A DNA stretch of 64,000 bases. Source: Defluviicoccus sp. Its GTDB lineage: Bacteria; Pseudomonadota; Alphaproteobacteria; MPNO01. Where the stretch lies: contig JAJEHI010000131.1 of the NCBI GenBank assembly GCA_022823775.1, positions 1 to 64,000 of the forward strand. The letters run 5' to 3'. Positions within the stretch are counted from its first letter, which is position 1. Every line of letters starts with the position of its first letter. The notes beneath the pieces were generated by a model that was not told where the DNA came from, did no database searches, and saw only the letters and a list, made by a program, of their open reading frames with translations. Shown one piece after another: positions 7,501 through 14,497 of this stretch. The translations under genes and the position numbers were made by a program.

Positions 7501-9192
7501 ATGTCCGGGACAGGCACGATGGAGAAACCCTCTCCGATGGACGACCGGAGCGAAGCCCGCGCGAGGCTGTCCGACGCGATGGCCTACGATCCGGCGCTCG
7601 CCGCGCGCTACCGCGGCGAAGGGCTGTGGCGCGACGAGCTCCTGACCGACTGGCTCGACCGGACCGTCGCGGAAATGCCGGGCGCCACCGCGATCGTCAT
7701 GGCCGAAGAGAGCATGACTTTCGCCGAACTCGGCGCGTTGAGCGATCGCCTCGCCAGCGGGTTCCGGCGGCTCGGAATCGGCATGGGCGACGTGGTCGGG
7801 GTCCAGCTGCGCAACGGGCCGTACTGGGTTGCCATTCACGTCGCGCTTTGCCGCATCGGGGCGGTCATGACCGGGCTCCATCTGACCTTCCGGGAGTCCG
7901 AGTGCGAGCGGGCGCTGGCGTTCGGCGAAGCCGTCGCGGTCGTCTGTGAGGAGGCGGCGGGAGATTTCGCCATCGCCGAGACAATGCTGCGCCTCAAGCA
8001 AAGGCTGCCCTCTTTGCGACACGTCGTTGTCGCGGGTGGCGGACCGGAGGGAACCGTTGCGCTCGAAGCGCTCGAGGACGAGGCCCGTCCCCGCACGGAA
8101 CGCGCCGATGCTTCCGGGCCGTTCATCATGCTCTACACCTCGGGTTCGACCAGCCGGCCCAAGGCGGTGCCGCTCAGCTACAACAACCTGCTCACCAACG
8201 CCCGGGGGAGCGCGGGCGTGTTCGGGATCGGCGCCCGGGACCGGATCATGGCGGCCGGCCCGTTCGCGCATCTTTACTCGCTGCACAGCCCGCATTTTTC
8301 GCTGCTTACCGGGGCGGCTCAGGTGATCCTGCCCGTCTACGAGAAGGGCGCGTTCGTGGATCTGGTCGAAAAGGCGCGTCCGACGGTCGTGTTCGCCGTG
8401 CCGGCCCATATCTTTCCCTGCCTCGCCGAAGGTTTGCTGGACAGCCGTGACTGGTCCTCGGTGCGTCTTCTCCTGATAGCGGGAGCGGCGGTTTCGGGCG
8501 ACCTCGTCAGGGAACTGGACTCCAAGCTGCCGAACGGAAGGGTGATCCAGCTCTGGGGGATGACCGAGATGCAGGCCGGCCTTTATACGCGGCCCGAGGA
8601 TCCGGTGGACTTCCCGGCGACAACCTGCGGACGGCCGAGCCCGGGAACAGAAATCCGCATCGCGAACGACGAAGGCGAAGCGCTGCCGCGGGGCGCCGAG
8701 GGAGAATTGCAGGTGCGCGGCGCCTCGGTCTTCCCCGGCTATCTGCACGACGCGGAAGCGAATGCCGACGCGTTCACCCGTGACCGCTGGTTCCGCACCG
8801 GCGACCTGGCGACGGTGGACGAGCACGGCAACGTCGTCCTCAAGGGCCGCATCAAGGACACCGTCAACCGGGGCGGAGTGAAATACAGTACCCGCGAGGT
8901 TGAGGACCTGCTCCTCGGCCATCCCGCGGTGGACCAGGCCGCGGTGGTGCCGGCGCCCCATCCGCGCCTGGGCGAGATCGGCTGCGCCTTCGCCGTCACC
9001 CGCGACGAGATTGCGGTGACGCTGGAAGATCTCTGCGCTTATCTTCTCGGACAGGGAATCGCGAAATACAAGCTGCCCGAACGGCTGGAGCTGATTGGCG
9101 AGATGCCGCTCGGGCCGTCGCGCAAGATCGACAAGGAGACGCTGAAGGCGATGGCAGCCGAAGCTCAGACAACCCGGGTTGGGGCGCGGTGA
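7501..9192 (+). CDS. AMP-dependent acyl-CoA synthetase/ligase
   Basis: FIMLYTSGSTSRPKAVPLSYNN; QLWGMTEMQAG; RWFRTGDLATVDEHGNVVLKGRIKDTVNRGGVKYSTREVEDLL. Stop overlaps the GTG start of the fbiC-like gene. Confidence 0.88.
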   Translation: MSGTGTMEKPSPMDDRSEARARLSDAMAYDPALAARYRGEGLWRDELLTDWLDRTVAEMPGATAIVMAEESMTFAELGALSDRLASGFRRLGIGMGDVVGVQLRNGPYWVAIHVALCRIGAVMTGLHLTFRESECERALAFGEAVAVVCEEAAGDFAIAETMLRLKQRLPSLRHVVVAGGGPEGTVALEALEDEARPRTERADASGPFIMLYTSGSTSRPKAVPLSYNNLLTNARGSAGVFGIGARDRIMAAGPFAHLYSLHSPHFSLLTGAAQVILPVYEKGAFVDLVEKARPTVVFAVPAHIFPCLAEGLLDSRDWSSVRLLLIAGAAVSGDLVRELDSKLPNGRVIQLWGMTEMQAGLYTRPEDPVDFPATTCGRPSPGTEIRIANDEGEALPRGAEGELQVRGASVFPGYLHDAEANADAFTRDRWFRTGDLATVDEHGNVVLKGRIKDTVNRGGVKYSTREVEDLLLGHPAVDQAAVVPAPHPRLGEIGCAFAVTRDEIAVTLEDLCAYLLGQGIAKYKLPERLELIGEMPLGPSRKIDKETLKAMAAEAQTTRVGAR

Positions 9193-13922: not shown

Positions 13923-14497
13923 CGATTTGCGCCATCGTCCCGGTTCGTTCGCTGGCGGACGGCAAGCGCCGCCTTGCCGGCGTCATGGAGGATGCGCAAC
14001 GCGCGGCGCTCAACGAACGGTTCCTGGTCCATACGCTCGGTCTCGCCGCCGCGCTGACGGGCCCGGCGATACTGGTCAGCCCCGACCCGGCGGTCGCCGA
14101 GCATCCGGCGGCGTCGAACGCCGTTCGCGTTTCCGATCCGGGCCGCGGCCTGAACGCCGCGATCGAGGCGGGCCGGCAATGCGCTCGGAGCCGGGGCGCC
14201 GAACGGATCGTCGTTTTGCCAACCGATCTGCCGACGGCGCGCCCCGGGGACCTGCTGGCTCTGGCCGGGGCCGGAAGCGCGGTCGCTATCGCGCCGGACC
14301 GGCGGAGGCAGGGCACCAACGGCTTGTCCGTCTCCGCCGCGCTCGATTTCGCGTTCCGGTTCGGCGCGGGGAGTTTCTCGGCGCACTTGGCCGAAGCGGA
14401 ACGGCTCGGTATCGCGCCCGACATCGTCGAAAATCCCCGCCTCGCGCTCGACATCGATACGCCGGAGGACTGGCGCCACTGGCACGAGAACGTCTGA
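13919..14497 (+). CDS. cofC: 2-phospho-L-lactate (or related) guanylyltransferase (CofC/FbiD)
   Basis: MTICAIVPVRSLADGKRRLAGVMEDAQRAALNERFLVHTL; IVVLPTDLPTARPGDL; DIDTPEDW; ATGA overlap with cofD. Confidence 0.88.
   Translation: MTICAIVPVRSLADGKRRLAGVMEDAQRAALNERFLVHTLGLAAALTGPAILVSPDPAVAEHPAASNAVRVSDPGRGLNAAIEAGRQCARSRGAERIVVLPTDLPTARPGDLLALAGAGSAVAIAPDRRRQGTNGLSVSAALDFAFRFGAGSFSAHLAEAERLGIAPDIVENPRLALDIDTPEDWRHWHENV

What the first reader, a model, noticed from the sequence alone, without database searches (positions are those of the whole stretch)
7501..14497. Complete, translationally coupled coenzyme F420 biosynthesis operon in an apparently alphaproteobacterial genome
Fused FO synthase (CofG+CofH domains), NADPH:F420 reductase, CofE, CofD and CofC follow each other with start/stop overlaps (GTGA at 9189, ATGA at 11528, TTGA at 12193, ATGA at 13919) or a 2-bp gap (CofE/CofD). 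Established: these families cover FO formation, 2-phospholactate-type activation/transfer, glutamylation and F420 reduction. F420 is best known from archaea and actinobacteria and is patchy in Proteobacteria, so presence, gene order and origin deserve study. CofE is stand-alone, without the nitroreductase fusion seen in actinobacterial FbiB.
Basis: partly seen in the sequence, partly recalled or inferred. Interest (0 to 1): 0.75.

Follow-up and report, generated by a model that had tools for sequence, protein, structure and literature searches.

The report
Bacterial coenzyme F420 biosynthesis operon
This is a complete, ordinary set of genes for making the redox cofactor F420 in an alphaproteobacterium; such sets are already known from many proteobacteria, and the one loose end worth testing is that the usual enzyme for the last reduction step is missing here and in 19 other alphaproteobacterial F420 genomes tested.

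Summary
9189-14497 encodes fused CofG-CofH FO synthase (FbiC), NADPH:F420 reductase (Fno/NpdG), CofE, CofD and CofC, each above its NCBIfam equivalog cut-off, with the stated 4-bp overlaps and 2-bp gap. The quoted start (7501) covers an acyl-CoA ligase gene overlapping fbiC; it is not a known F420 gene. F420 has been detected in alphaproteobacteria. The operon is no recent import: it is syntenic in the genus, CofD is present in 24 of 27 held genomes of the order (22 of 144 in the class), and one FbiC clade for the order is not rejected. CofC has the 2-phospholactate/PEP pocket, not the 3-phosphoglycerate one. CofD-positive alphaproteobacteria examined have 20-59 luciferase-family matches (50 here), CofD-negative ones 1-11. 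The real puzzle: no recognisable FbiE-type dehydro-F420 reductase is found in any of 20 F420-encoding alphaproteobacteria tested, so the last step of a PEP route is unassigned.

The parts
7501..9192 (+). AMP-dependent acyl-CoA ligase, overlapping fbiC by 4 bp (GTGA); genus-level addition in front of the F420 operon, substrate unknown
   Evidence: PF00501 258 bits, PF13193 48 bits; overlaps or directly precedes fbiC in three other genus members L103, L104, L106
9189..11531 (+). fbiC: fused CofG-CofH FO synthase, 780 aa, two radical-SAM domains
   Evidence: NF006687 CofGH 1115 bits over cut-off; TIGR03550 and TIGR03551 over cut-off; CX3CX2C at residues 48 and 459
11528..12196 (+). fno/npdG: NADPH-dependent F420 reductase, 222 aa
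   Evidence: TIGR01915 205 bits, cut-off 150; PF03807
12193..12972 (+). cofE: F420-0:L-glutamate ligase, stand-alone, 259 aa
   Evidence: TIGR01916 244 bits, cut-off 181; PF01996 over residues 16-236 and no nitroreductase domain
12975..13922 (+). cofD/fbiA: transferase that joins the phospho-acid to FO, 315 aa
   Evidence: TIGR01819 304 bits, cut-off 257
13919..14497 (+). cofC/fbiD: guanylyltransferase, 192 aa, specificity residues L78, I82, Q131, G149, S152 (2-PL/PEP type)
   Evidence: TIGR03552 132 bits, cut-off 105; alignment to 7P97 (3-PG enzyme)
14505..15440 (+). PuuE-like gene just downstream; syntenic in the genus, link to F420 not shown
   Evidence: TIGR03212 162 bits, below its cut-off of 425; present in L103-L106
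6013..7434 (+). UbiD-family decarboxylase upstream; a neighbour seen at this place in one other genus member only
   Evidence: TIGR00148 338 bits; found in L104 but not at this place in L103 or L106
1041..2027 (-). luciferase-like oxidoreductase, closest to F420-dependent (Mer-like) families; candidate F420 user near the operon
   Evidence: PF00296 216 bits; best NCBIfam labels are F420/Mer types, all under cut-off

Best explanation
This is a functional chromosomal operon that makes coenzyme F420. FbiC condenses tyrosine with the riboflavin precursor 5-amino-6-ribitylaminouracil to give FO. CofC activates 2-phospholactate or PEP with GTP, CofD transfers it to FO, CofE adds the gamma-glutamate tail, and Fno reduces F420 with NADPH to supply luciferase-like and Ddn-type F420-dependent oxidoreductases elsewhere in the genome. 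The operon is an old, mostly vertically kept trait of this alphaproteobacterial order. Gene identities, synteny and distribution are shown here; the enzymatic steps follow from the established families; production of F420 in this organism and the exact CofC substrate are inferred.
For: Equivalog-level family matches for every step and intact radical-SAM motifs. Tight overlaps. Same order of genes in all congeners where the contig reaches and in the second genus of the family. CofD in 24 of 27 genomes of the order and FbiC in most of them. AU test does not reject one FbiC clade for the order, p 0.82. Core genes glnA, gyrB and valS in the same window. Users: 50 luciferase-family matches, one F420H2_quin_red gene at 143 bits, 2 of 20 sampled luciferase-like proteins over the cut-off of F420-dependent families and 5 more with an F420 family as best label. 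CofD-positive alphaproteobacteria have 20-59 luciferase-family matches against 1-11 in CofD-negative ones. CofC pocket residues are not of the 3-PG type.
Against: No dedicated dehydro-F420 reductase (FbiE) was found in the genome, so a PEP route would lack its last known step. No Fgd passes its cut-off (best 87 of 420 bits), so reduction would rest on Fno alone. Of the 20 luciferase-like proteins sampled, 6 have FMN-type or unspecific best labels and 7 match no family at the threshold used. There are no expression or metabolite data.
Confidence: 0.93

Rival explanations
1. The operon makes a modified cofactor, 3PG-F420, as in Mycetohabitans, which would explain why no dehydro-F420 reductase is needed.
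For: No FbiE in the genome; the 3-PG route needs no reduction step (PMC8764529).
Against: The critical Ser162 of the 3-PG enzyme is Gly149 here; M91, C95 and H145 are L78, I82 and Q131. None of the 60 relatives extracted has Ser/Thr at that site.
Confidence: 0.05
2. The operon was acquired recently by horizontal transfer, for example from actinobacteria.
For: The distribution over the class is patchy (22 of 144), F420 operons occur on proteobacterial plasmids, and transfer is the accepted source for Gram-negative bacteria (PMC8764529).
Against: The operon is syntenic within the genus, near-universal in the order, close to core genes, about 51% identical to plasmid-borne Rhodococcus FbiC against 58-69% to the listed relatives, most of them proteobacterial, and away from the actinobacterial rows in the tree.
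Confidence: 0.05
3. The transcription unit is a catabolic cluster in which the acyl-CoA ligase and UbiD-type decarboxylase feed an F420H2-dependent reduction, so F420 is made for one degradation pathway.
For: The ligase overlaps or directly precedes fbiC in four genus members and UbiD lies just upstream here and in L104.
Against: UbiD is absent from that place in L103 and L106, and the tblastn finds no ligase with the operon in the second genus of the family. Ligases are not visibly enriched near other F420 operons: 8 of 80 loci, roughly what a common gene family would give by my estimate.
Confidence: 0.12

Closest known systems
F420 operon of Aromatoleum aromaticum EbN1 plasmid 2 (NC_006824.1)
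   Same: Identical gene order fbiC-npdG-cofE-cofD-cofC, fused FO synthase at 61% identity, stand-alone CofE
   Different: On a conjugative plasmid with IS elements; next to a PNPOx-family gene; no overlapping acyl-CoA ligase
Common proteobacterial F420 operon fno-cofE-cofD-cofC-fbiC (for example Cupriavidus numazuensis L059, Kaistia granuli L071)
   Same: Same five genes, same families, fused FbiC
   Different: fbiC is last instead of first
Paracoccus alcaliphilus plasmid F420 operon (L196)
   Same: An alphaproteobacterium with the full gene set plus npdG and a nearby luciferase-like F420 gene
   Different: cofG and cofH are separate genes, the order is cofG-cofH-cofD-cofC-cofE-npdG, and its CofG+CofH groups with Thermomicrobium
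Actinobacterial fbiABCD
   Same: Fused FbiC and the same chemistry
   Different: There CofE is fused to a nitroreductase (FbiB) that reduces dehydro-F420; here CofE stands alone and no such reductase is found

Membership tests
Bacterial F420 biosynthesis operon | FO synthase with CofG and CofH radical-SAM domains | tested here: met
   NF006687 1115 bits over cut-off; two CX3CX2C motifs
Bacterial F420 biosynthesis operon | CofC/FbiD and CofD/FbiA present | tested here: met
   TIGR03552 and TIGR01819 over cut-off
Bacterial F420 biosynthesis operon | F420-0:glutamate ligase (CofE domain) | tested here: met
   TIGR01916 over cut-off
Bacterial F420 biosynthesis operon | F420 actually produced | not testable with these tools
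   needs LC-MS or fluorescence
PEP route (mycobacterial / Thermomicrobium type) | Dehydro-F420 reductase FbiE or FbiB C-terminal domain | tested here: not met
   TIGR03553: no match in the own genome; 20 CofD-positive alphaproteobacteria score at most 63 bits, like CofD-negative ones (at most 57.5), while the Thermomicrobium roseum record gives 163 bits
3PG-F420 route (Mycetohabitans type) | Ser (or Thr) at CofC position 162, with M91, C95 and H145 | tested here: not met
   Gly149, L78, I82, Q131 in the window CofC
[quoted passage not shown]
   TIGR03554 best 87 bits against a cut-off of 420
Fno-based F420 reduction | NADPH-dependent F420 reductase in the operon | tested here: met
   TIGR01915 205 bits, cut-off 150

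The most novel reading that the evidence does not exclude
Alphaproteobacterial F420 producers finish F420 without the known FbiB/FbiE reductase. Either CofC/CofD really use 2-phospholactate in these bacteria, or an unrelated enzyme reduces dehydro-F420, or the cells use dehydro-F420 itself as the working cofactor. My evidence finds no recognisable FbiE and argues against 3PG-F420, but cannot choose between these three.
Probability: 0.5. Interest if true: 0.5.

Novelty: new member of a known kind. Interest (0 to 1): 0.28.

Why it matters
On its own it adds one more lineage to a known pattern. Two by-products are more useful. First, F420 genes in alphaproteobacteria go with a large set of luciferase-like oxidoreductases (20-59 matches against 1-11), and in this order F420 is a stable trait, which suggests a real physiological role and not only the trace role inferred from Oligotropha and Paracoccus. 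Second, the consistent lack of a recognisable dehydro-F420 reductase makes the open question of which three-carbon acid proteobacteria build into F420 directly testable by LC-MS.

Tried and rejected
3PG-F420 route: rejected on CofC residues. Recent transfer: rejected on synteny, order-wide presence and tree. Hidden FbiE: the two nitroreductases in the genome, found by PF00881, match YdjA-like (NF008088) and NfsA-like (NF008033) families best, both under cut-off, with TIGR03553 at 34.6 bits for one of them against a cut-off of 249.55. Fgd: no match over cut-off. A link of acyl-CoA ligase to F420 operons in general: only 8 of 80 loci have one in the flanks and only three upstream on the operon's strand, two of them sister rows in the tree. 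The quick FbiC tree has poorly supported deep forks, so it was used mainly for the one-clade test. The literature search for FbiE in Proteobacteria returned only the 2021 review and one mycobacterial paper; the library lacks most subscription papers.

Full report
Observation. Each passes the NCBIfam equivalog cut-off and Pfam agrees. The overlaps GTGA, ATGA, TTGA, ATGA and the 2-bp gap between cofE and cofD are as stated, and both radical-SAM CX3CX2C motifs are intact.

Genomic setting. The window is the start of an 85-kb contig of a 4.8-Mb assembly rated 100% complete. glnA, gyrB and valS lie in the same window, so this is chromosome. Four other genus members and one member of a second genus carry cofD. 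Synteny is retained: ligase-fbiC-fno-cofE-cofD-cofC in L103, L104 and L106; fno to cofC at a contig end in L105; the five F420 genes in L107. The PuuE-like gene downstream is kept in L103-L106. The UbiD gene upstream is shared at this place only with L104, so it is a changeable neighbour.

Distribution. CofD is present in 24 of 27 held genomes of the order, including one copy broken into several frames, against 22 of 144 genomes spread over the class. FbiC follows a similar pattern. In those loci the commonest order is fno-cofE-cofD-cofC-fbiC; the order seen here, with fbiC first, recurs in L039, L063, L065 and L092 and in Aromatoleum aromaticum EbN1. A quick maximum-likelihood tree of 106 FbiC sequences places the window with its genus (SH-aLRT 100) outside the branch holding Nonomuraea, Thermomicrobium and Paracoccus alcaliphilus, with Rhodococcus at the root; deep forks are weak. 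Forcing the order into one clade is not rejected (p-AU 0.82) and the held tree scores better. Inheritance within the order is therefore the simplest reading.

Mechanism. From established chemistry (review PMC8498797): FbiC makes FO, CofC/CofD add a three-carbon phospho-acid, CofE adds glutamates, Fno reduces F420 with NADPH. For CofC, residues that set substrate choice were mapped on the 3-PG enzyme of Mycetohabitans (PMC8764529; PDB 7P97). The spacing of M91, C95, H145 and S162 was checked in the alignment. The window has L78, I82, Q131 and G149, plus the conserved S152, which is the 2-PL/PEP pattern; none of 60 relatives extracted from the loci has Ser or Thr at the decisive site.

The missing reductase. 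In the PEP route dehydro-F420 is reduced by the FbiB C-terminal domain or by FbiE. The window CofE is stand-alone. TIGR03553 finds nothing in the own genome at E 0.001. In 20 CofD-positive alphaproteobacteria the best score is 63 bits, little above that in CofD-negative ones (57.5 bits), while the Thermomicrobium roseum record gives 163 bits, presumably its FbiE. The two nitroreductases of the genome fall nearest other families. So either 2-PL is the true substrate, or a different enzyme does the reduction, or dehydro-F420 is used as such. This rests on absence of a family match and is inference.

Use of the cofactor. The genome has 50 luciferase-family matches at E 1e-15 and one F420H2_quin_red (Ddn-type) gene. 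In a chosen set of 15 CofD-positive and 9 CofD-negative alphaproteobacteria, luciferase-family counts are 20-59 (median 48) against 1-11 (median 1), Mann-Whitney p 3e-5. The set is not corrected for kinship, some matches may be split, and at most 60 candidates per genome were scored. Within the order, G006, 99% complete and without CofD or FbiC, has only 6. Of 20 luciferase-like proteins sampled from the own genome, 2 pass an F420-family cut-off, 5 more have an F420 family as best label, 6 are nearer FMN or unspecific families and 7 match none. So part of the expansion is probably F420-dependent, but not shown to be all. No Fgd passes its cut-off, so Fno is the only recognised F420 reducer among those searched; the review had said that predicted alphaproteobacterial producers encode Fgd as well.

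Comparison and verdict. F420 biosynthesis in Proteobacteria, fused FbiC there, and detection of F420 in Oligotropha and Paracoccus are published (PMC8498797). CofC enzymes of both were assayed (PMC8764529). A paper on Sinorhizobium meliloti GR4, KH35c and KH46 associates an fbi operon with nodulation competitiveness (PMC8407117). This is a new member of a known kind. The interest is in the reductase gap and in the strength of the association with luciferase-like enzymes.

Noticed in passing
L016-L095 (CofC alignment): Several relatives carry His or Tyr where PEP-type CofC has Leu92 (pattern HVLGS in 8 of 60), a substrate-pocket variant that differs from both the PEP/2-PL and 3-PG patterns read from the literature.
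   Followed up: partly
L022, L023, L024, L033, L034, L048, L050, L060: FbiC of several Chloroflexi and one Acidobacteria MAG falls among proteobacterial FbiC (62-65% identity to the window), suggesting transfer between these phyla in an unresolved direction.
   Followed up: partly
G016 C1:661429-662339: CofD, and FbiC at C1:657559-659843, are broken into several frames with internal stops in this order member; either pseudogenes or long-read indel errors.
   Followed up: no
L058: A contig labelled Klebsiella pneumoniae MAG carries an F420 operon that groups with Gammaproteobacteria MAGs; the label is probably a wrong bin name.
   Followed up: no
window 30124-41437: Catabolic-looking stretch: acyl-CoA ligase, Rieske ring-hydroxylating oxygenase, ferredoxin-type reductase, PaaA/PaaC-like protein, CoA-transferase III, molybdopterin dehydrogenase subunits and thiolase.
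   Followed up: no
L199 (Novosphingobium resinovorum plasmid pSA2): The annotated F420 cluster holds fbiC, npdG and cofC with luciferase-like genes but no cofE or cofD in the stretch shown; the plasmid gene table is incomplete, and the sequence was not searched.
   Followed up: no
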